IMG/VR virus record: IMGVR_UViG_3300028571_001115
Location: 1-60,313 of that record
Source: a virus
Reading direction: 5' to 3' (one strand)
DNA length: 60,313 bases
Part shown: piece after piece, positions 9,139 through 60,244 of the stretch
Layout: every line of letters begins with the position of its first letter
Numbering within the stretch: the stretch's first letter is position 1
Position numbers and translations under genes: made by a program
The notes under the pieces: model-generated
What the model saw: only the letters and a program-made list of their open reading frames with translations
Database searches by the model: none
Told to the model about the DNA's origin: nothing

Positions 9139-9207
9139 TCTCGATGTTGGTATTCGTTTGGATCGTCAACCATTCAGTGCAAAATTTATTGTCCACTGAT
9201 GGTTGAC
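9139..9207 (-). promoter_or_regulatory. Regulatory region with two operators and a conserved CGAATACC box
   Basis: The gap between two late genes holds GTCCACTGATGGTTGAC (9191-9207) and the weaker GTCAACCATTCAGTGCA (9165-9181). On the minus strand the latter runs into TTGACG, 7 nt, then CGAATACCAACATC, an element found upstream of several other minus-strand genes. It is probably the promoter for 8819-9088 and the genes after it. On the plus strand, TTGACA (9203-9208), 17 nt and TATCGA also form a promoter-like pair pointing into the 3' end of the 810-aa gene. Confidence 0.5.
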
Positions 9208-9232
9208 ATCAGCTGAATGACTATGTATCGAA

Positions 9233-11665
9233 TTAGTCCTCGTCAGTGAAGCCCATCCGCCGGAGGATCTTTGCAGCCTCCCGCGTGTTGGTTTTAACCC
9301 CTTCAAACCGGTCCCCATGGCTGGCGCGCAGCTCGGCTGCCAGCCGGTGCGGGGAGACGATCTTGTTCTGGTCGACAATTCTTTGTACCGCTTCGGAGAT
9401 AACCGGATGCCCCTCAGTATCGAGTTTCTGGTGCAGTGCCGACCGAGCCTTGGCGTGCTCTGCCGAGTGTCCAGCAGCCTCGTGGCCGCGACCCCCAAAC
9501 AGGCCTGCGCGTGCCTCGCTGGTATCACTGCCGGTCGCCGCTGCCGTCGTTGCGCCAGCTGCCGCAGCTGTGATCTTGCCAAGACCGCGATCTGCGGCAA
9601 TCGCCTTTTTAGCCTCCTCGACATCGCCGCCCGATCGGTTGAGGTAGCCCTGCGTCTTCTTGGCTACTTTGCCGACGGTCTCATCGGCCATCGGGCCAGC
9701 CGGGATACCGGCGCGCCGACGCACCTCCTCGATGGCCTGGGCGCGACCTGGGCCGCCCTTGACATTCAGGGCGTGGTTCAGGGGCGACATGCCGTCGATG
9801 TGGCGCAGTTTGTCGCCAATGCTCGACAGGAGGTCGTCCTGCGCACTGTGGCGACCTGCGGCCTTGTCGAACAGGCTCTTGGACATGGTCTGGCTCGGGT
9901 CGCGCGTGAACTCCCCGGACGAGGTTTTCGGTTCAAATAAATCGCGCCCCATGGTCTGGCTCGGGTCGCGCGTGTAGGGTTGTGTTTGGTCTGCTTTTGC
10001 GAATGGAGGTTTAGATGACGACGTTACCAGATCCGATCCGGTTGCACCCCTTGGGACTGGCTGACCAAAGGCAGCCATTATCTCCTCAGGAGAACGCGCC
10101 TGTCCTTGAGGCGGAAGTGGCGGAGGTCCCCGAAGCCCGCCGTCAGGGCTTGATCGAGTGGCTTCTGCGCCAGTATCTGCCGTACGATTGGATGCCTCGC
10201 CAGTGGCAACACGAGCACGATCTCCTGGAGCATCGCCGTTTCGAGGAGTTTGTGCAAAGCCTTGACCCCCCGACTGATATTGCGAGCCGCCGCCGGGCGT
10301 ACGAGTTTCGTCACGGACAGAAAGCGCCGTTTTAGGCTGATCTGCCGCAAACGGCGGGATCTGCTTGCGCTGAATGGGCACTGGCTCGTAGGGAACGTCC
10401 TCTGCCTTGAGCTTGCGGATCGGCATGGCCGGGCGCTGCTCTGGGTCAAACCCGTCTGCACGAAGCTTGTCCTCAGCTGCGTTACGTTTGGCGTTCCTTG
10501 CCATATCCTTTGCCGATGTCGGCTGGATGGGTGCCCGCGCGGCGTTGATGAGCTTTTGTCCGCCCACGGCCATTAGCGAGCCACCAAGAAACGATGGCAG
10601 CGACTGATGTAGCGGGTCGTCAATCATGCCGGTCAAATTTTTAATGGCCTGATCGCGCGCCCGGGTGCCCGTGTCGTAGACGGCAGCATCCCACTCATCG
10701 GGCAGGGCCTTGCCTTCTAGCGCCATGCCGCCCCCAATGGCTCCGCCGGTCAGGTAGTCCTTGGTCTTGAGGGTTTGGCCTGCTGCCGTCTTTCGCACAG
10801 CGCCAATGGCAGGGATCGCAGTCCCAAGCGCGGTGAAGCCAACCATGGCTGCGGGAGCCGCCCATGGTAGCCGATCGCGAATGGGGGCCTGGGCTTGCCA
10901 TTCGTCGCCCACGCGGGTCTCTTCGTCGGCAAGTGCCTTGCGCGCAGCTTCTTTGGCTTGTGCCAGCGGCCCGCTGTTGCGGTACGTTTCGATTTGCTGA
11001 GTCAGGGTCTTGACTTGGCCACCGGCGTCTTCGCGGATTTGCTTGGCTTGCCCAGCCCTCACGCCGTTGGGCTTGTCCAGGTCCCGCAATCTCTGCTGCT
11101 GCGCATCGCGCTGCTTGATGAGGTCGTTCAGCCCCGGGTCGGTCCTATCGAGGTCCTCCAGGCTCTTGCGCATCTTTACAATTTGCGGGTTGGATGAAAC
11201 AGCATCCGACCGGCGTGTGGCTGCGCCCTGTACGCCATCGGCTGCCTCTGCCGCCGTCGTGAGGGTAGCCGAAGCCCCTGCTGCGCCAATTGCGCGTGCG
11301 CCACCAATGGCGCGCAGTATGGCTGCGGTCGGAAGCAAGCCAGCAATGGCGTTACCGGCTGAATTTGCTCCGTGCTTAGCCATGTCGCCGTATTCGCCAT
11401 TTTGATATGACGTGTACGCATCACCACCTGACTCGACGGCACGACCCAGGGACGGGATCCCCGTCAATTCAGCCCCAACGTTCCCAGCTGTCCGCGCGAA
11501 GTTGCCCGCAGTCGATTGGACAGCTGCCCACTGCTCTGGAGACAGCTCGCCGGTCATGTTGCCGCTGCCGTCGCCATAGTCCATCCCGGCAGATCCAGGG
11601 ATTGGATTGCCCATGGCGTCGTACAGCTGTTCATCGCGCACAAAGGGGGACTGGGCCGCCATCAA
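9233..11665 (-). CDS. Large probable internal virion (ejection) protein
   Basis: An 810-aa protein. Residues 1-110 are Gly/Ala-rich, residues 110-140 are an Ala-rich, possibly membrane-active stretch, and a coiled-coil-like region spans roughly 160-240. More Gly/Ala segments, a long Pro/Ser/Gly low-complexity region (about 450-590) and a charged C-terminus follow. The segment TRDPSQTM-x5-F occurs twice (about residues 565 and 587). Lying between portal and scaffold genes in a short-tailed phage, it is likely carried in the head and ejected with DNA. No enzyme motif was found. Confidence 0.5.
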   Translation of the reverse strand: MMAAQSPFVRDEQLYDAMGNPIPGSAGMDYGDGSGNMTGELSPEQWAAVQSTAGNFARTAGNVGAELTGIPSLGRAVESGGDAYTSYQNGEYGDMAKHGANSAGNAIAGLLPTAAILRAIGGARAIGAAGASATLTTAAEAADGVQGAATRRSDAVSSNPQIVKMRKSLEDLDRTDPGLNDLIKQRDAQQQRLRDLDKPNGVRAGQAKQIREDAGGQVKTLTQQIETYRNSGPLAQAKEAARKALADEETRVGDEWQAQAPIRDRLPWAAPAAMVGFTALGTAIPAIGAVRKTAAGQTLKTKDYLTGGAIGGGMALEGKALPDEWDAAVYDTGTRARDQAIKNLTGMIDDPLHQSLPSFLGGSLMAVGGQKLINAARAPIQPTSAKDMARNAKRNAAEDKLRADGFDPEQRPAMPIRKLKAEDVPYEPVPIQRKQIPPFAADQPKTALSVRDETRTPGGGSQYQSGGQGFAQTPRNGDAPGDRARVATGEASNRTADTGAEATRSSPDGGLRGPPPLPPQGQARSPEEIMAAFGQPVPRGATGSDLVTSSSKPPFAKADQTQPYTRDPSQTMGRDLFEPKTSSGEFTRDPSQTMSKSLFDKAAGRHSAQDDLLSSIGDKLRHIDGMSPLNHALNVKGGPGRAQAIEEVRRRAGIPAGPMADETVGKVAKKTQGYLNRSGGDVEEAKKAIAADRGLGKITAAAAGATTAAATGSDTSEARAGLFGGRGHEAAGHSAEHAKARSALHQKLDTEGHPVISEAVQRIVDQNKIVSPHRLAAELRASHGDRFEGVKTNTREAAKILRRMGFTDED
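9884..9974. repeat. Direct repeat within the 810-aa gene
   Basis: A 25-bp block beginning CATGGTCTGGCTCGG is repeated at 9884-9908 and 9950-9974. It encodes the duplicated TRDPSQTM motif of the internal virion protein. Confidence 0.8.
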
Positions 11666-51177: not shown

Positions 51178-52173
51178 TCAATCCTCGTAGATCATATTGC
51201 TGGTTGCTTCGTCTGCCCTGGTCCAGTCGATAGGTGGACCAGCCTCGGCCTTCTTTTTCGCGGCAGCGTCACGCGCCAGCTTGCGGTTGCTCGCCTCCTT
51301 CCAGAGGGCAGCGACTGGATCCTTCGGTGGGTCTTTCCGCCTGCACCATGGCCCCACCTGCTCGACCCAGGCCTCCAGCGTCACCGCCGGGCCAAACCTA
51401 CGCATGACCCCGGCAACGACAGCAGCGGCCTCGAACTCGGTGCAAGCCTTGGCACCCATCACCACAGCCAGGACCGTGCCAGTGTTGCCGTTGAAGATCT
51501 TCTTCACGAAGGTGCGCTCGTCGCGAGCCCCGCCACGTGGACGATCAGCAGGCGCATCTTCAGCCGATTGACCGTCAGTAGTCGGAGCATGAGATTTGCT
51601 CCGCTTTTGAGTGTCCCTGGTTTCAGTAACTGACGAAGGATCTAAGGCAACGGCGAAATAGTCCTGCTGATAGTCCTGGATAAAGTCCTGTATATAAGAG
51701 GATGTCCTAAAATCCGGTCGACCGCTGTCCTGATTTCCGGACACAGGTCGACCGGATTTCCGGCTGTCCGGATTTCCGGCTGTCCGCTTTTCCTGTTGTC
51801 CGGTATTTAGGACGGCCAACTCGGTTGCTGGAGCAACTGAACGCTTGAGATTGGCCAGGGGGAGTAGTTCGTTGGTGATACGTTCCATCCGCTCAGCCGT
51901 CATCGGCATGCGGTAGGATGCTGGTCGGTTTGGTGTCCGCTTGATGATGAGGTGCCCGGCCTCAACGGCCTCTTTTAGGGCTGCTGAGACACGTTGCCGG
52001 TGATTGGCATCCAGGGCCTGCACGAGCCGCTCGACATCCACGTTTTCGAGCTTGCGTGTTTCTTTGTCGACGTTAAGCCGGATCAACGCCGTCAGCACTT
52101 TCGCACGGTCTCCCATCTCAGGGTCGACCAGGATCGCGCGTAGCTCATCCAGTATCTGGATCTCGTTACTCAT
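51178..52173 (-). CDS. Replication initiator-like protein (lambda O-type layout)
   Basis: A 331-aa protein. Residues 1-100 form a helical, winged-helix-like domain (VERLVQALDANHRQRVSAAL; EAGHLIIKRTPNRPASYRM). Residues 125-175 are a low-complexity linker (GNPDSRKSGRPVSGNQDSGR, IQDFIQDYQQDYF) whose DNA is full of short repeats. The C-terminus is a helical domain (EAAAVVAGVMRRFGPAVTLE). An initiator with the origin inside its own linker is exactly the lambda O arrangement. It would bind the iterons and recruit helicase. ATGA overlap with the micro-gene upstream. Confidence 0.55.
   Translation of the reverse strand: MSNEIQILDELRAILVDPEMGDRAKVLTALIRLNVDKETRKLENVDVERLVQALDANHRQRVSAALKEAVEAGHLIIKRTPNRPASYRMPMTAERMERITNELLPLANLKRSVAPATELAVLNTGQQEKRTAGNPDSRKSGRPVSGNQDSGRPDFRTSSYIQDFIQDYQQDYFAVALDPSSVTETRDTQKRSKSHAPTTDGQSAEDAPADRPRGGARDERTFVKKIFNGNTGTVLAVVMGAKACTEFEAAAVVAGVMRRFGPAVTLEAWVEQVGPWCRRKDPPKDPVAALWKEASNRKLARDAAAKKKAEAGPPIDWTRADEATSNMIYED
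51660..51800. other. Candidate replication origin (iteron cluster inside the initiator gene)
   Basis: AGTCCTG occurs three times at exact 12-bp spacing (51660, 51672, 51684), with related GTCCT copies at 51704 and 51727. The palindrome CGGTCGACCG (51715-51724) and a second GGTCGACC (51746) follow. The 16-bp unit CCGGATTTCCGGCTGT is then repeated in tandem (51752-51767, 51768-51783). This density of direct repeats is far above the rest of the window and coincides with a linker in the initiator. Confidence 0.65.
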
Positions 52174-52289: not shown

Positions 52290-52349
52290 CACCCTCGGCT
52301 GGTCATCACACCGCCGGGGGTTTTTCTTGTGCGCCAGACCATATGATTT

Positions 52350-52380: not shown

Positions 52381-52854
52381 TCAGGCCGCTGAATGCCTTT
52401 TTGCACCGGTCGTCTCGGCGATCCGGAGGAGGATCTGCCACTGTTTGGTCGACAGCTTGACCGATGGTCCCCGCTTCATCAGGCTGTTGATAAATTCGTT
52501 TTCCCAGGCATCCATCATGAACCGGTGCTTGTCCGCCCAGCGGATCAGATCCCATGCCTTAAATCCCTGGCAGCTGGCCGTGAACTCGTTGCTGCGTTCA
52601 TACTGGCGGCCAGCCGGGCGCTGTTGCTGCTGGGTCTGTTCATAGCTCCGGCCCGGACCAAAACCGTTCGTAGTCGCGGTGGCCACCGGTTGCGATCGCG
52701 TCGTGAACGCGCGGTACACCAGATCGCTCCAGGTGATCCCGGCCTCGCGCAGGATGCGGGTGGCCATGCGCGCGGCTACCGCGATCTCGCCCTCGTGGTC
52801 TGAGGTGAGCATCCCGGCGAACTTAGCCAGCTTCTCGATTTTCGACTGTTCCAC
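52381..52854 (-). CDS. DUF2786-like protein
   Basis: A 157-aa protein, GTG start with CGGAG 5 nt upstream (another GTG lies two codons earlier). Residues 1-50 fit a DUF2786 helical domain: KIEKLAKFAGMLTSDHEGEI, AARMATRILREAGITWSDLV. The rest is Gln/Arg-rich and ends in MKRGPSVKLSTKQWQILLRI. DUF2786 proteins are frequent in phages, with no defined role. Its start lies in the operator controlling the divergent small RNA candidate. Confidence 0.55.
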   Translation of the reverse strand: MEQSKIEKLAKFAGMLTSDHEGEIAVAARMATRILREAGITWSDLVYRAFTTRSQPVATATTNGFGPGRSYEQTQQQQRPAGRQYERSNEFTASCQGFKAWDLIRWADKHRFMMDAWENEFINSLMKRGPSVKLSTKQWQILLRIAETTGAKRHSAA

Positions 52855-52895
52855 GTCCACTCCGGGTTGACGGCGGTTCTGGATTGGTGTAATTC
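52855..52895 (+). promoter_or_regulatory. Plus-strand promoter with operator for a candidate RNA
   Basis: TTGACG (52867-52872), exactly 17 nt, TAATTC (52890-52895) on the plus strand, pointing away from the surrounding minus genes. GTCCACTCCGGGTTGAC (52855-52871) is an operator overlapping the -35. Predicted transcription start near 52902. Confidence 0.65.
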
Positions 52896-52901
52896 ATTTT
52901 C

Positions 52902-52997
52902 AGACGCTGGGCTCCCCCGCACGGCGTCGTCTCCACAGGGTTCCCAGTGCCCTGGCTACCCGGCAGCGTCCAGATCGCTGCCGGGTTTCTCTTTTTT
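52902..52997 (+). ncRNA. Candidate regulatory small RNA (about 96 nt)
   Basis: Bounded by a good promoter and a strong terminator, with no coding frame of note. It can fold into a 5' helix (AGACG with CGTCT), a hairpin CAGGG-N9-CCCTG (about 52937-52955) and the terminator. It is placed between two minus-strand genes, so it is neither the leader of a gene nor antisense to one. It resembles phage-borne small RNAs in layout, such as those acting on host or repressor transcripts, but no homologue is recognised. Confidence 0.55.
52959..52997 (+). terminator. Strong plus-strand terminator
   Basis: CCCGGCAGCG (52959-52968), loop of 7, CGCTGCCGGG (52976-52985), then TTTCTCTTTTTT. A 10-bp perfect GC-rich stem. 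On the minus strand no U tract follows, so it works only for the plus strand. Confidence 0.85.
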
Positions 52998-53038
52998 AGG
53001 CCGCCTTTACTGCGACTTTAGGCCGCCTTTACTGCGAC
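52995..53038. repeat. 22-bp perfect tandem duplication at a gene end
   Basis: TTTAGGCCGCCTTTACTGCG plus AC, twice in tandem (52995-53016, 53017-53038). The inner copy holds the stop codon of the membrane protein gene (TAA at 53018-53020); the other copy duplicates its last codons outside the gene. Confidence 0.9.
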
Positions 53039-54088
53039 TGGCAGCTTGTAGCAGGGGCGGCCATAGGGGTTGGTGATCTTGACGCACCCAGCGGAGAGCA
53101 GCTGCTGGCCGAGCAGGTTTGGTTTGAGAACTGTCCACTTGGTGCGGGCGACCCAACTGGAGTACAGGCTCTGCACCGTGGTCATCGGCAGCGTGTCCGT
53201 GCCCTGGTGCTTGGCCCGCACGTAGTCCAGGAACTCCTGGGCCTGAGCTTTATGCAGGAGGCGGGTCCGCATCGCCTGGGCGTTGGGCACGTACCGCTTA
53301 CCGCCCTTGGTGGTGACTAGCCGCAGATGGGGCATGGTTGTGACCGGCGTTGGCTCATCTGGCTCGGCCTCATCGACCTCCTCCTGGGCTTGCTGGGCTG
53401 GTACCGGCGCGGGGTTTCCCATTAGGGGCGCAATCAGGATTGCGCCAAAAGTCGACAAGGTCTCCAGCACCATCAGGAACGCCAGGATCGCGATCAGGTT
53501 GACCTGTGCGTCCGAGAGATTGCTGTGCTTGACGATGAGGGCCGAAAATGGGTCTGCGTCGCCGGTACCCTTCTCGTCCTTCATCTTGCTGGCCAGGGCG
53601 GCGATCTTGGTCTCGGCCTTGACGATTTCGCCGTCCCAGTACCCGCGCTGAGCCGGTGGCCCGTACAGCTTACTGTCGGTCATCTCGGCGATGCTGGCGG
53701 TGGCGGTGGCGATCTGGGATGCCAGGGAGGCGGTGGCTGCGCCGTCCTTGTCGCGATTGGCCTTGTAGTCGGTCAGGACGCCAGCGATGTAGCCGGTTGC
53801 CGATTTGACCGAGTAGGCCATGCAGAACGGCCAGACCAGTACGCAGACGGCGACGATAGCCCAGTCGCGCTGCCGCCATGCTGCAGCCAAACTCATGGGG
53901 ATAAGTGCCTTGAATATGTCCGCCGCAAGGGCCGCGCCAATGGTGACTGGCGCATGGTGGGAGATCTCGGCGGCGTGGGTGTAGTTGGCCAGGGCGGAGA
54001 CGACCCAGGCGAGTGCCACCGCTGCGGTGATACTGCCACGAAACGCGAGCGTCCCCAGCGTCCAGAGTACGTGGTCGATTTTTGACAT
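53018..54088 (-). CDS. Membrane protein with C-terminal winged-helix-like domain
   Basis: A 356-aa protein with membrane helices near residues 18-38 (ITAAVALAWVVSALANY), 50-70, 77-95 (WAIVAVCVLVWPFCMAYSV) and 203-225 (VNLIAILAFLMVLETLSTFG). A long periplasmic or coiled region lies between. The last 130 residues are soluble and basic, with LHKAQAQEFLDYVRAKHQG and WTVLKPNLLGQQLLSAGCVK, like DNA-binding winged helices of replication proteins. It may tether phage DNA or replication to the membrane. No family is recognised. Confidence 0.5.
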   Translation of the reverse strand: MSKIDHVLWTLGTLAFRGSITAAVALAWVVSALANYTHAAEISHHAPVTIGAALAADIFKALIPMSLAAAWRQRDWAIVAVCVLVWPFCMAYSVKSATGYIAGVLTDYKANRDKDGAATASLASQIATATASIAEMTDSKLYGPPAQRGYWDGEIVKAETKIAALASKMKDEKGTGDADPFSALIVKHSNLSDAQVNLIAILAFLMVLETLSTFGAILIAPLMGNPAPVPAQQAQEEVDEAEPDEPTPVTTMPHLRLVTTKGGKRYVPNAQAMRTRLLHKAQAQEFLDYVRAKHQGTDTLPMTTVQSLYSSWVARTKWTVLKPNLLGQQLLSAGCVKITNPYGRPCYKLPVAVKAA

Positions 54089-54152: not shown

Positions 54153-54386
54153 CTAAAACGGACATCTTCCCACGCCCTCACCGCTGGACACGGTGGAGGG
54201 CGTTTCGTTTTTCTGTTTGAGGAAGGCCTCCTCGAACATGGACAGGAACGTCTGCCCCACCATCGTGAACTCGTCGCGCGGGACGTGGCTCTGGCAGAAC
54301 CACGTCCTCACGTTTGTTTTCAAATCACGCAGCGCATAGTTCGCGAACGCGATCCGGCAGACTGAACACATCTCCTGCTTCGGCAC
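54153..54386 (-). CDS. Small CxxC protein overlapping gcrA
   Basis: A 77-aa protein; GTG at 54386 with GGGAGG is chosen over an ATG at 54422 or a later ATG. MCSVCRIAFANYALRDLK and WFCQSHVPRDEFTMVG give a Cys/His pattern for a small zinc site. It overlaps the 3' end of the GcrA-like gene in a different frame. Function unknown. Confidence 0.45.
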   Translation of the reverse strand: MPKQEMCSVCRIAFANYALRDLKTNVRTWFCQSHVPRDEFTMVGQTFLSMFEEAFLKQKNETPSTVSSGEGVGRCPF

Positions 54387-54837
54387 CCAAACCTCCCGAG
54401 CCACCCAGGCAGCGCCGGGCATGATCCACGCACCACGACAGACCCATCACCGATGGCTTGCCGCAGTACCGCACGTCGCCGACCGGCTCGCCCGCGATGT
54501 GACGGCACGACGGTGCCACCTCATCGAGATCGTGAATGGAGATAAGGTCATCCCTGAGGGCCTGCTCCATCTCCATTCGCGCCATCGCCGCCGCATGCTG
54601 CACATCTGCCCGCAGGGCAGCAACAGCGAGTTTGGCGACACCGTGCTTGCGGCTTTTGTAGAGCTGATTGCGCGCCTGGTGGCCCCGGCCAATGCCGAGC
54701 CGATCCACCTTTGCCGAAATCATCCCAGTCGTACACCCGTCACCCAGCCGCTCGGCGATGACCTCGTAAATCAGCCCCTCTTGCCTCACCATTCGGGTCA
54801 GTGCTGCGACCCGCTCTTCGGTCCAATATCGTGCCAT
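54325..54837 (-). CDS. gcrA: GcrA-like cell cycle regulator
   Basis: A 170-aa protein. The N-terminal HTH matches GcrA: WTEERVAALTRMVRQEGLIY then GDGCTTGMISAKVDRLGIGR. A linker of about 50 residues follows, then the C-terminal zinc-like domain CRHIAGEPVGDVRYCGKPS and WCVDHARRCL, which contacts sigma-70 in Caulobacter GcrA. GcrA activates promoters bearing methylated GANTC and is confined to alphaproteobacteria and their phages. A phage copy may redirect host cell-cycle transcription or activate phage promoters. The last 20 residues overlap another frame. Confidence 0.8.
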   Translation of the reverse strand: MARYWTEERVAALTRMVRQEGLIYEVIAERLGDGCTTGMISAKVDRLGIGRGHQARNQLYKSRKHGVAKLAVAALRADVQHAAAMARMEMEQALRDDLISIHDLDEVAPSCRHIAGEPVGDVRYCGKPSVMGLSWCVDHARRCLGGSGGLGAEAGDVFSLPDRVRELCAA

Positions 54838-54878: not shown

Positions 54879-55217
54879 TCAGGCGGCGAGCCCTTCTTTG
54901 ACGTAGTCAAACAACCGTTCGAGATCGGGACGGACTTCGTGGGGTTTGAGCCGCGTCAGCTCGCACACCTGCATAAGGTAGTCTTCAGGTACGGCCTTCC
55001 ACTTGCTGACGTTCTGGCGGGTCAATCCCAGCTGTTTGGCAAGCCACCGATCGGCAACTTCCATCTCGTCAAGCCGTGCGCGCAGCCGATCTAGCCCCTG
55101 CTGACGCAGGCGCTGTTTCAGTGGCACGACCGGCATCTCGTCCGCCTCCGACACCTCGACGGCGTCCAGAGCGGCCTCGATAGCGTCGGCATCCTGTTTT
55201 TTAAGTTTTTTGACCAT
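54879..55217 (-). CDS. Cro-like / YdaS-type HTH regulator
   Basis: A 112-aa protein. The HTH is at residues 55-85 (VADRWLAKQLGLTRQNVSKW), followed by KAVPEDYLMQVCELT and KPHEVRPDLERLFD, the YdaS/Cro family ending. An acidic-and-basic N-terminal 45 residues precede it. It is divergent from the CI-like repressor, the classical lysis-lysogeny switch layout. The predicted transcription start coincides with the A of the ATG, so its mRNA may be leaderless. Confidence 0.7.
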   Translation of the reverse strand: MVKKLKKQDADAIEAALDAVEVSEADEMPVVPLKQRLRQQGLDRLRARLDEMEVADRWLAKQLGLTRQNVSKWKAVPEDYLMQVCELTRLKPHEVRPDLERLFDYVKEGLAA

Positions 55218-55223
55218 GCATCC

Positions 55224-55282
55224 GCCATATCAGGGCGATAGGACTGTGTCAACCTGCAGCTGACTGTCCACTACTGACTGAT
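55224..55282 (-). promoter_or_regulatory. Switch-region promoter with operators
   Basis: TTGACA (55247-55252), 17 nt, TATGGC (55224-55229) for the Cro-like gene. Operator GTCAACCTGCAGCTGAC (55248-55264) overlaps the -35 and a weaker site (55266-55282) lies beside it, so tandem sites precede the repressor gene. No clear sigma-70 promoter for the repressor itself was found between 55283 and 55417. Confidence 0.7.
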
Positions 55283-55417: not shown

Positions 55418-56089
55418 ATGGCAAAACCGATCAAAGACGAGTATGTCGAGCTGGGTAAGAGGATCAAGCAGGCGCGCCTACAGGTAAACCGATCGCAGGA
55501 CGATTTGCGGGCGCTAACCGGCATCAGCAAGCAGGCCCTATCGGCCTGGGAGCGCGGTCAAGCACCACCGACTCTGGGCAATTTGGCTAAATTCGCCCTA
55601 GCTGTAGGCGTTACAGTTGAGGAGTTGCTTTCCGGCACCACTGCTGAGTTAACTGATCGATCATCAGTATCGCTTAGGCTTGATGCTGGTCAATCATTCG
55701 TGCCATTGTATAGACCTCACATGGGCGTGGAGGTTTTGATGGGGCGCGTTACGCGGGCTGAGAGTAATCCTGAAAAGTATGTCTCTACAATCACTAAGCA
55801 CTCAGACGACGCGATTGCGATCCATATTCGTGACAAAAGTATGGAGCCTAGATTTCGGGTTGGTGACATCGTCACGCTGGAGCCTTTGGTCGAGCCCGAG
55901 CCGGGTAATCTGGTCTTTGCCTTTGCCAGCGGCAGCCCGGTATTTCGCCGCTTTATGCCGGTTCGGCATGGGGATAGCAACGGCGCGCGGCTGTGCGCCA
56001 CCAACGAGGCCTACCCAGAAATCGCCATGGCTGCGGGGGATGCGGTGTTGGGGGTCATGAAGGAGCACATCTCGTTCCACCACGATTGA
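55418..56089 (+). CDS. cI: CI/LexA-type phage repressor (HTH + S24 domain)
   Basis: A 223-aa protein. Residues 8-72 are an HTH_3 domain (IKQARLQVNRSQDDLRALTG, SKQALSAWERGQ). Residues about 100-220 form an S24-like domain with DKSMEPRFRVGDIV (Ser141). The catalytic Lys position is Arg (PVFRRF, residues 175-179), and no clear Ala-Gly or Cys-Gly cleavage site is seen, so RecA-induced self-cleavage may not occur. It is the obvious candidate to bind the dispersed GTCAAC-N5-GTTGAC operators. A bidirectional terminator follows. Confidence 0.8.
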   Translation: MAKPIKDEYVELGKRIKQARLQVNRSQDDLRALTGISKQALSAWERGQAPPTLGNLAKFALAVGVTVEELLSGTTAELTDRSSVSLRLDAGQSFVPLYRPHMGVEVLMGRVTRAESNPEKYVSTITKHSDDAIAIHIRDKSMEPRFRVGDIVTLEPLVEPEPGNLVFAFASGSPVFRRFMPVRHGDSNGARLCATNEAYPEIAMAAGDAVLGVMKEHISFHHD

Positions 56090-58582: not shown

Positions 58583-58931
58583 GACCGTCAGTGCCCTGGT
58601 CTGGCGCGAGGGCACACGACCGCGTAGTCTGCGCTGGCTCCGTGAGGACATGGCGCGCCGTGGCTTTGCCAGAAAGGTCGGCGGACGCTACGTCACGACA
58701 CTGGAGATGGTCGAGCGATACAAGGATGATTTAATCGGATGCGTGAAAAATTTGCAATCAGAGCCACCCTTAAACCTGCCAGTCGCATCAAAAACGGCGT
58801 CACGTATTGGAGCGCCAGAGGCAACGTCCCCGTCAAAAAAGAGGACGGCACGATTGCCCATCAGCGAGTCGACATTGGCCTTGGAAAAGCTGCAAACGCT
58901 GCGGAAAGAAAAGCGGAGTGTGCGCGCCTAA
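58554..58931 (+). CDS. Excisionase-like HTH protein
   Basis: A 125-aa protein from a GTG with GAGGAGG upstream. Residues 12-60 look like a small winged HTH (LVWREGTRPRSLRWLREDMA, VGGRYVTTLEMVERYKDDLI), as in excisionases or MerR-type adaptors. The tail is Ser/Pro-rich and overlaps the integrase start by 193 bp. Position directly before the integrase supports a directionality role. Confidence 0.5.
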   Translation: MTNALTQVDETVSALVWREGTRPRSLRWLREDMARRGFARKVGGRYVTTLEMVERYKDDLIGCVKNLQSEPPLNLPVASKTASRIGAPEATSPSKKRTARLPISESTLALEKLQTLRKEKRSVRA

Positions 58932-60244
58932 ATAGTGAGTACGAGGAGCGGGCGAAGGCGAGTGGCAAAAGAATGACTTTCGCCAGGGCGTGCATGAATT
59001 ATTGGGATGCTGGGCACGAGCCGTGCTTTATGTCAGATCGAATAATCGCAGCCATCGGCGACATGAATTGCGCCGATATTGACGACACGGTCATGTTGCG
59101 GGTGGCCCAGAAACTATTCCGCAGAGAAGCGTCCCCTGGCTATGTCAACCGGCACCTTTATACGCCGGTCAACGCTGTCCTGAAGATGGCCTCTAAGTCG
59201 AAGGTCTGCCCACCACCAGATCTCACGCGCCCAAAGGGCCACAAGTCGTCGCCCCAGAAGGCGATCCCAGATGACGCTTGGTACTCCAAGGTCGAACCAT
59301 TCCTAACGCCGCACCTGCGCGCCCTGGTGGCTTTCATGACCCTGCACGGTCGCCGTCTTGGGGATGCGCTCAACGCCGCCCGGGGGGACTACCTTCGAGA
59401 CCAGGGCGTGCTGATGATCGGCAAGGACAAGATGGGCAACGCCCTGCAGATCCGCCTCACCGTACACGTCATCAAGTGCATTGAGGCGATGCCGGATTTT
59501 GGCCAGCACAAGCACCTGTTTCGGTATGGTCCAGTAGCTCCGTCGAACGTCCGCCGGGACCTGCAGAGGGCGTGCCTTAAGGCTGGCGTACCTTATTTCT
59601 CCCCGCACTCCTTGGGCCGCCACGCCTTCGCGACCCGCATGCTGCGCGCCGGGTTCTCGCTCCAGTTCGTGAAGGACGCGGGTGGGTGGAAAACGATCGA
59701 AATGGTGTCGAACCGGTACGGCCACCTTGCCCACAGCGAGGTCAGCGCCGCCGTCGAGTCTGTGTCGGTCGATTTTGCCAACGGCAACGAGAGCGCCATC
59801 GCGGCAGCCTACAAGCTGGCGGACGAAGCCTTGTCTGTACCCACACTGCCGAAGGTCGACCTTGATCATCCGCTTGCTCGCCAGGAGGCGCTGATGCGCC
59901 TGCGCGGCACGAGCCCTGCCTGGGTCTATTTCTTCTACTGCTCGGGCGCGATCAAGATCGGCGTCTCGACTGACGTCCAAAAGAGGCTGAAGAACATCAA
60001 TGGAGGCAACAGCAACACCATCTACCTCGTCGGTCTGCTGCCGGGGTCGTTCCAGCTTGAAGGCGAACTGAAAGCTCGGTTTGACAAGTTCGCTACCAGT
60101 GGAGAGTGGTTCAGGGCTGAACCAGAGCTGCTTCGCTTCATCGACGTGAATGCTGACGGAAAACCCCTGATCGACGGTGGAAAATTGGTGGAAAAAGATT
60201 TTCGCCTCGCCCTGCCAAAGTTGGATGATGGTTTACCTCAATAA
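58739..60244 (+). CDS. int: Tyrosine integrase fused to a T5orf172 (GIY-YIG-like) domain
   Basis: A 501-aa protein. Residues 80-160 are the core-binding domain. Residues 175-335 are the catalytic domain: LHGRRLGDALN (Arg205/206), KDKMGN, HSLGRHAF (His290, Arg294), GGW (315-317) and Tyr327 in NRYGHL. Residues about 392-470 match T5orf172: WVYFFYCSGAIKIGVSTDVQ, RLKNINGGN and SGEWFRAEPE, with Arg416 and Glu456 as expected nuclease-type residues. Phage integrases normally end after the catalytic Tyr. The last gene before the likely att site. Confidence 0.85.
   Translation: MREKFAIRATLKPASRIKNGVTYWSARGNVPVKKEDGTIAHQRVDIGLGKAANAAERKAECARLNSEYEERAKASGKRMTFARACMNYWDAGHEPCFMSDRIIAAIGDMNCADIDDTVMLRVAQKLFRREASPGYVNRHLYTPVNAVLKMASKSKVCPPPDLTRPKGHKSSPQKAIPDDAWYSKVEPFLTPHLRALVAFMTLHGRRLGDALNAARGDYLRDQGVLMIGKDKMGNALQIRLTVHVIKCIEAMPDFGQHKHLFRYGPVAPSNVRRDLQRACLKAGVPYFSPHSLGRHAFATRMLRAGFSLQFVKDAGGWKTIEMVSNRYGHLAHSEVSAAVESVSVDFANGNESAIAAAYKLADEALSVPTLPKVDLDHPLARQEALMRLRGTSPAWVYFFYCSGAIKIGVSTDVQKRLKNINGGNSNTIYLVGLLPGSFQLEGELKARFDKFATSGEWFRAEPELLRFIDVNADGKPLIDGGKLVEKDFRLALPKLDDGLPQ

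What the first reader, a model, noticed from the sequence alone, without database searches (positions are those of the whole stretch)
52855..52997. Operator-controlled small RNA gene between minus-strand genes
A plus-strand promoter (TTGACG-N17-TAATTC) overlapped by one of the phage operators is followed about 60 nt later by a 10-bp GC stem with a U tract. There is no coding frame. The transcript would be about 96 nt with two further hairpins. Nothing protein-coding on the plus strand follows, so this appears to be a dedicated RNA gene under repressor control. I recognise no known RNA family.
Basis: partly seen in the sequence, partly recalled or inferred. Interest (0 to 1): 0.75.

Follow-up and report, generated by a model that had tools for sequence, protein, structure and literature searches.

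The report
Repressor-controlled antisense RNA gene in phage
A temperate phage of an alphaproteobacterial type carries, between two early genes, a short promoter-to-terminator unit on the opposite strand that should make a roughly 95-base antisense RNA when the phage repressor is absent, much like the OOP RNA of phage lambda but switched by the phage's own operators.

Summary
The operator at 52854-52872 is one of 23 strong copies of a palindrome (TGTCAACT-N3-AGTTGACA) scattered through the window; none is expected by chance. In these sites the GTTGAC half doubles as a promoter -35. A TA at exactly 17 nt occurs on 13 of 46 operator strands, against about 1 at other spacings, and the plus strand of 52854-52872 is one of them. 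All ten intergenic TTGAC-N17-TA sequences in the window lie on operators. The terminator (52958-52986, -23 kcal/mol) is the most stable simple one in 60 kb. The 96-nt span has negative coding score. The two 5' hairpins are not significant (z -1.5).

Best reading: a phage-encoded antisense RNA and convergent promoter inside the early operon, upstream of the replication genes. It works like lambda pO/OOP, but under an immunity-type operator instead of LexA. It is not a sequence homologue of OOP, and no Rfam family matches.

Transcription is unproven. No relative carrying the locus was found, so conservation is untestable here. The operator also overlaps the start of minus gene 52381-52860, and two neighbouring gaps hold plus-strand terminators without a clear promoter, so a roadblock operator plus an insulating terminator remains a serious rival.

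The parts
52854..52872 (.). Operator, member of a 23-site genome-wide palindromic family (TGTCAACT-N3-AGTTGACA); overlaps the -35 of the plus promoter and the RBS/start of minus gene 52381-52860
   Evidence: PWM 17.3 bits, 0 expected per genome; strict pattern 24 observed vs 0.5 in shuffles
52867..52895 (+). Promoter: -35 TTGACG (52867-52872), 17-nt spacer, -10 TAATTC (52890-52895)
   Evidence: One of 13 of 46 operator strands with TA at exactly 17 nt, about 1 at other spacings; all 10 intergenic TTGAC-N17-TA in the window lie on operators
52902..52997 (+). Predicted non-coding, antisense RNA of about 93-96 nt (start site inferred 7 nt after the -10)
   Evidence: Fold -47.5 kcal/mol, z -5.1; 5' part alone z -1.5; negative coding score; no Rfam match
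52958..52997 (+). Intrinsic terminator: 11-bp stem, 7-nt loop, tail TTTCTCTTTTTT
   Evidence: Most stable simple terminator of the window, -23.0 kcal/mol
52381..52860 (-). Early gene downstream (on the mRNA) of the antisense region; 159 aa; N-terminal part related to small Alphaproteobacteria and phage proteins
   Evidence: Coding score; distant relatives
53018..54088 (-). Early gene upstream (on the mRNA); 356 aa orphan
   Evidence: Coding score; no clear relatives found
55247..55265 (.). Operator of the same family on the promoter of the Cro-like gene (TTGACA-N17-TATGGC, minus), next to the CI-like repressor gene 55418-56089
51701..51803 (.). Iteron-like cluster, 7 copies of a 17-mer, inside gene 51178-52173: candidate replication origin within a putative initiator gene

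Best explanation
The unit is a small antisense RNA gene embedded against the early operon. During lytic growth or after induction, RNA polymerase starts at the plus promoter (52867-52895) and stops at the terminator near 52997, giving an RNA of about 95 nt fully complementary to the gap between genes 53018-54088 and 52381-52860 of the early mRNA. It damps transcription of the downstream replication genes, by head-on interference between polymerases and/or by RNA duplex formation and RNase III cleavage of the mRNA in the gap, as pO/OOP does in lambda. In the lysogen the CI-like repressor covers the operator, which includes the -35, and keeps the RNA off. Shown: operator family, promoter geometry, terminator, absence of coding, antisense position. 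Inferred: which protein binds the operator, that the RNA is made, and what it does.
For: The operator is a member of a family with 23 strong sites and none expected. The 17-nt TA signal is sharply confined to the right spacing (13 against about 1). All ten intergenic TTGAC-N17-TA in the window sit on operators. The -35 TTGACGG fits the Caulobacter RpoD consensus TTGaCgS fully and the -10 TAATTC fits four of the five specified bases of TANAWC (consensus in PMC8144410). The best terminator of the window lies 62 nt downstream on the same strand, and there is no coding signal. The layout Cro-like gene, antisense unit, candidate initiator gene with internal iterons, primase/helicase parallels lambda cro-cII-oop-O(ori)-P. 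In lambda, pO is convergent to pR and reduces pR transcription, and OOP acts on cII mRNA through RNase III (PMC3985674).
Against: The -10 is poor by generic sigma-70 standards. About one TA at a given spacing is expected by chance, and two other plus-strand operator sides with TA at 17 (9190, 36236) also lead to no gene. The operator overlaps the start of minus gene 52381-52860, so it has another possible job. Two nearby gaps carry plus-strand terminators without an evident promoter, so terminators here need not belong to a small RNA. No relative with the locus was found. No expression data.
Confidence: 0.55

Rival explanations
1. Stoperator plus insulator. The operator serves the minus-strand early operon: bound repressor blocks elongation or initiation at the start of gene 52381-52860. 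The plus-strand hairpin is only a terminator that shields the early operon from stray opposing transcription; no dedicated RNA exists.
For: Several operators sit in operon gaps just upstream of a Shine-Dalgarno sequence (4706, 5657, 22809, 33618, 34580), and 52854-52872 overlaps the RBS/GTG of a minus gene. Two other gaps of the same operon have plus-strand terminators (52293-52319 and 54173-54202) without a TA at 17 nt from a TTGAC.
Against: The TA at 17 nt on the plus side belongs to a strongly enriched class, and the terminator lies at the distance expected for a small RNA gene.
Confidence: 0.3
2. Remnant of a lost cassette: an operator-controlled plus-strand gene once lay between this promoter and terminator and was deleted, leaving a transcribed but functionless stub.
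For: Promoter and terminator frame a short non-coding stretch inside an operon of the other strand; the window has other operator-promoters that drive plus-strand genes (24273, 26102).
Against: The promoter, operator and terminator look intact, and no gene fragment is recognisable (coding scores negative in all three frames).
Confidence: 0.1
3. Trans-acting small RNA acting on host or other phage mRNAs.
For: Its structure and terminator are compatible with a free small RNA.
Against: The 5' hairpins are not significant and no target was tested; perfect cis complementarity is the simpler basis for action.
Confidence: 0.05

Closest known systems
Lambda OOP RNA with promoter pO and its terminator (lambdoid phages)
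   Same: Short antisense RNA on the strand opposite the early operon, in the gap upstream of the replication genes, ending at a GC hairpin with a U tract; the convergent promoter sits just before the downstream gene.
   Different: No sequence similarity (local score 14.0 against shuffled mean 13.9). The control site is the phage's own operator family, whereas lambda pO carries a LexA site (PMC5869508). In lambda the terminator lies inside the cII coding sequence; here the RNA ends about 20 nt short of the neighbouring stop codon.
Cluster A mycobacteriophage (L5/Bxb1) operators and stoperators
   Same: Many repressor-type sites dispersed over the phage genome, some in promoters, some not promoter-associated.
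   Different: Here the sites are palindromic and often double as the -35; the mycobacteriophage sites are short, asymmetric and mostly in one orientation (PMC6550527). The putative repressor here is CI-like with an S24 domain.
Phage P1 C1 operators (from memory, not tested)
   Same: Dispersed operators at many promoters of a temperate phage.
   Different: P1 operators are asymmetric with another sequence (recalled).

Membership tests
Lambda OOP antisense RNA | Transcribed opposite to the early mRNA between an early regulatory region and the replication genes | tested here: inconclusive
   Position and strand fit; that 51178-52173 is the initiator rests on its iteron cluster and neighbours only
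Lambda OOP antisense RNA | Sequence homology to OOP | tested here: not met
   Local alignment no better than shuffles
Lambda OOP antisense RNA | LexA site in the promoter | tested here: not met
   No GTTC-N7-GTTC-type box found at 52841-52920 with the simple pattern used; a phage operator is there instead
Lambda OOP antisense RNA | RNase III-dependent action on the overlapping mRNA | not testable with these tools
   Needs RNA experiments
Any Rfam 15 family | Score above the family's gathering cut-off | tested here: not met
   0 matches in the window
Dispersed phage operator/stoperator system | Many copies of one repressor-type site over the genome, some at promoters and some in operon gaps | tested here: met
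   23 strong sites; both positions seen
Dispersed phage operator/stoperator system | Sites bound by the phage repressor, blocking initiation or elongation | not testable with these tools
   Inferred only from the site next to the cI-cro pair (55247-55265)

The most novel reading that the evidence does not exclude
The phage repressor controls, through one dispersed palindromic operator family that doubles as the -35 of its promoters, both the mRNA operons and at least one antisense RNA aimed at the replication genes, so that lysogeny, early transcription and antisense damping share one switch. Plus-strand terminators in two neighbouring gaps could mark further antisense units.
Probability: 0.3. 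Interest if true: 0.6.

Novelty: new variant of a known kind. Interest (0 to 1): 0.42.

Why it matters
If real, it would be an OOP-like antisense unit with no sequence kinship to lambda, placed under the immunity operator instead of the host SOS repressor. That would suggest that temperate phages repeatedly evolve a convergent promoter just upstream of their replication genes. The operator array also gives a directly testable map of the regulon of a phage with no close relatives in the collections searched.

Tried and rejected
DNA and protein searches of the locus and its flanks against phages, plasmids, viral contigs, GTDB contigs and a sample of 385 Alphaproteobacteria found no relative carrying the unit. 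Distant relatives of gene 52381-52860 lie in other contexts; the few antisense hairpins found upstream of them have poor tails and no shared sequence. Distant primase relatives have other early regions. The contig with an identical terminase covers only the left part of the window; the 50%-identical one shares no early genes but has two related operators. A covariance model was not built because there is only one sequence. The structure model of 51178-52173 was too poor to use (pLDDT 41.5). Rejected: a coding gene on the plus strand (coding score -33 bits); a minus-strand terminator (no T run follows the hairpin on that strand); a pairing target at 54045-54062, because it lies on the strand that is not mRNA.

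Full report
What the window is. The window is a 60,313-base virus record, 60.5% G+C. It carries a CI-like repressor with HTH and S24 domains on the plus strand (55418-56089), a divergent Cro-like gene (54879-55217), a GcrA-like gene (54325-54837), Gam- and Erf-like genes and an integrase, and a primase/helicase, a helicase, a portal and a large terminase. GcrA is a regulator known from Alphaproteobacteria (own knowledge), so the host is probably one. Most genes are on the minus strand. The finding lies in the gap between minus genes 53018-54088 and 52381-52860 of the early operon.

The observation. TTGACG (52867-52872), a 17-nt spacer and TAATTC (52890-52895) are there, followed by an 11-bp stem with a 7-nt loop and TTTCTCTTTTTT. 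The terminator is the most stable simple one in the window, -23.0 kcal/mol against -16.7 for the next; the best in each of ten shuffled genomes lay between -9.3 and -19.2. The predicted 96-nt RNA folds at -47.5 kcal/mol, z -5.1, but without the terminator the z-score is only -1.5, so the two further hairpins carry no weight. The region has no coding signal and no Rfam match.

The operator is real and belongs to a dispersed family. A strict pattern NGTC-N8-GTTGACN occurs 24 times against 0.5 in shuffles. A symmetric PWM gives 23 sites of 17.3 bits or more, none expected in 40 shuffled genomes; 52854-52872 is the weakest of these but well above chance. Consensus: TGTCAACT-N3-AGTTGACA. The PWM was refined on the window's own sites, so the bit scores of members are somewhat flattered; the strict-pattern count does not depend on it.

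The operators double as promoters. Because the half-site contains TTGAC, a -35-like hexamer alone proves nothing. The independent test is the -10. Over both strands of the 23 sites, TA occurs 13 times at a spacing of exactly 17 and about once at most other spacings. Conversely, all ten intergenic TTGAC-N17-TA sequences of the window lie on operators, 52867(+) among them. Among these are the promoter of the Cro-like gene (TTGACA-N17-TATGGC) and that of the plus-strand operon after cI (56164). The -35 TTGACGG also fits the Caulobacter RpoD consensus (PMC8144410). With about one chance case expected, a single site of this class is probably real, but two other plus sides without a gene (9190, 36236) are a reminder that chance cases exist.

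A second role for the same operator. Several operators lie in operon gaps directly before a Shine-Dalgarno sequence, like stoperators, and 52854-52872 overlaps the start of gene 52381-52860. Two neighbouring gaps contain plus-strand terminators (52293-52319 and 54173-54202) with no promoter of the class. The rival that the operator serves the minus operon while the terminator insulates it is therefore given 0.3.

Mechanism. The RNA would be perfectly complementary to the early mRNA between its two flanking genes, with its promoter head-on to the operon. Downstream on that mRNA lie 52381-52860, then 51178-52173 with seven iteron-like repeats inside it, then primase/helicase. This resembles lambda, where pO lies before O, the origin lies inside O (own knowledge), pO activity lowers pR transcription, and OOP acts on cII mRNA through RNase III (PMC3985674). 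I therefore propose an OOP-like damping unit, off in the lysogen and on in lytic growth. Shown: operator, promoter geometry, terminator, non-coding, antisense position. Inferred: CI as the binder, transcription, and effect.

Comparison. There is no sequence similarity to OOP, and the control site is a phage operator rather than the LexA site reported for pO (PMC5869508). It works like OOP but is not filed as a member. The operator array resembles cluster A mycobacteriophage sites in being dispersed, but is palindromic (PMC6550527).

Limits. Collections may withhold near records of the window. Gene calls are from a home-made coding model.

Noticed in passing
window, 23 sites from 4706 to 56182: Genome-wide palindromic operator family (TGTCAACT-N3-AGTTGACA), part at promoters with a 17-nt TA, part in operon gaps before Shine-Dalgarno sequences: a dispersed operator/stoperator-like regulon, probably more interesting than the small RNA itself.
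   Followed up: partly
52293-52319 and 54173-54202 (+): Two further plus-strand intrinsic terminators in neighbouring gaps of the minus-strand early operon, without a clear promoter; either further antisense units or insulators.
   Followed up: partly
9190-9208 (+): An operator-promoter (TTGACA-N17-TATCGA) points into the 3' end of the minus gene 9233-11662, with no plus gene and no terminator within 300 nt.
   Followed up: no
51701-51803: Seven iteron-like 17-mers and a 24-nt inverted repeat inside gene 51178-52173: candidate origin within a putative initiator gene.
   Followed up: partly
52995-53038: Perfect 22-bp tandem duplication covering the stop codon of gene 53018-54088 and touching the terminator's T tract.
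   Followed up: no
58739-60244: Integrase with a C-terminal T5orf172/MUG113 (GIY-YIG-like) domain fused to it.
   Followed up: no
L209:1-6706: A contig with identical terminase extends about 6.7 kb beyond the left end of the window, so the window is not the complete phage.
   Followed up: no
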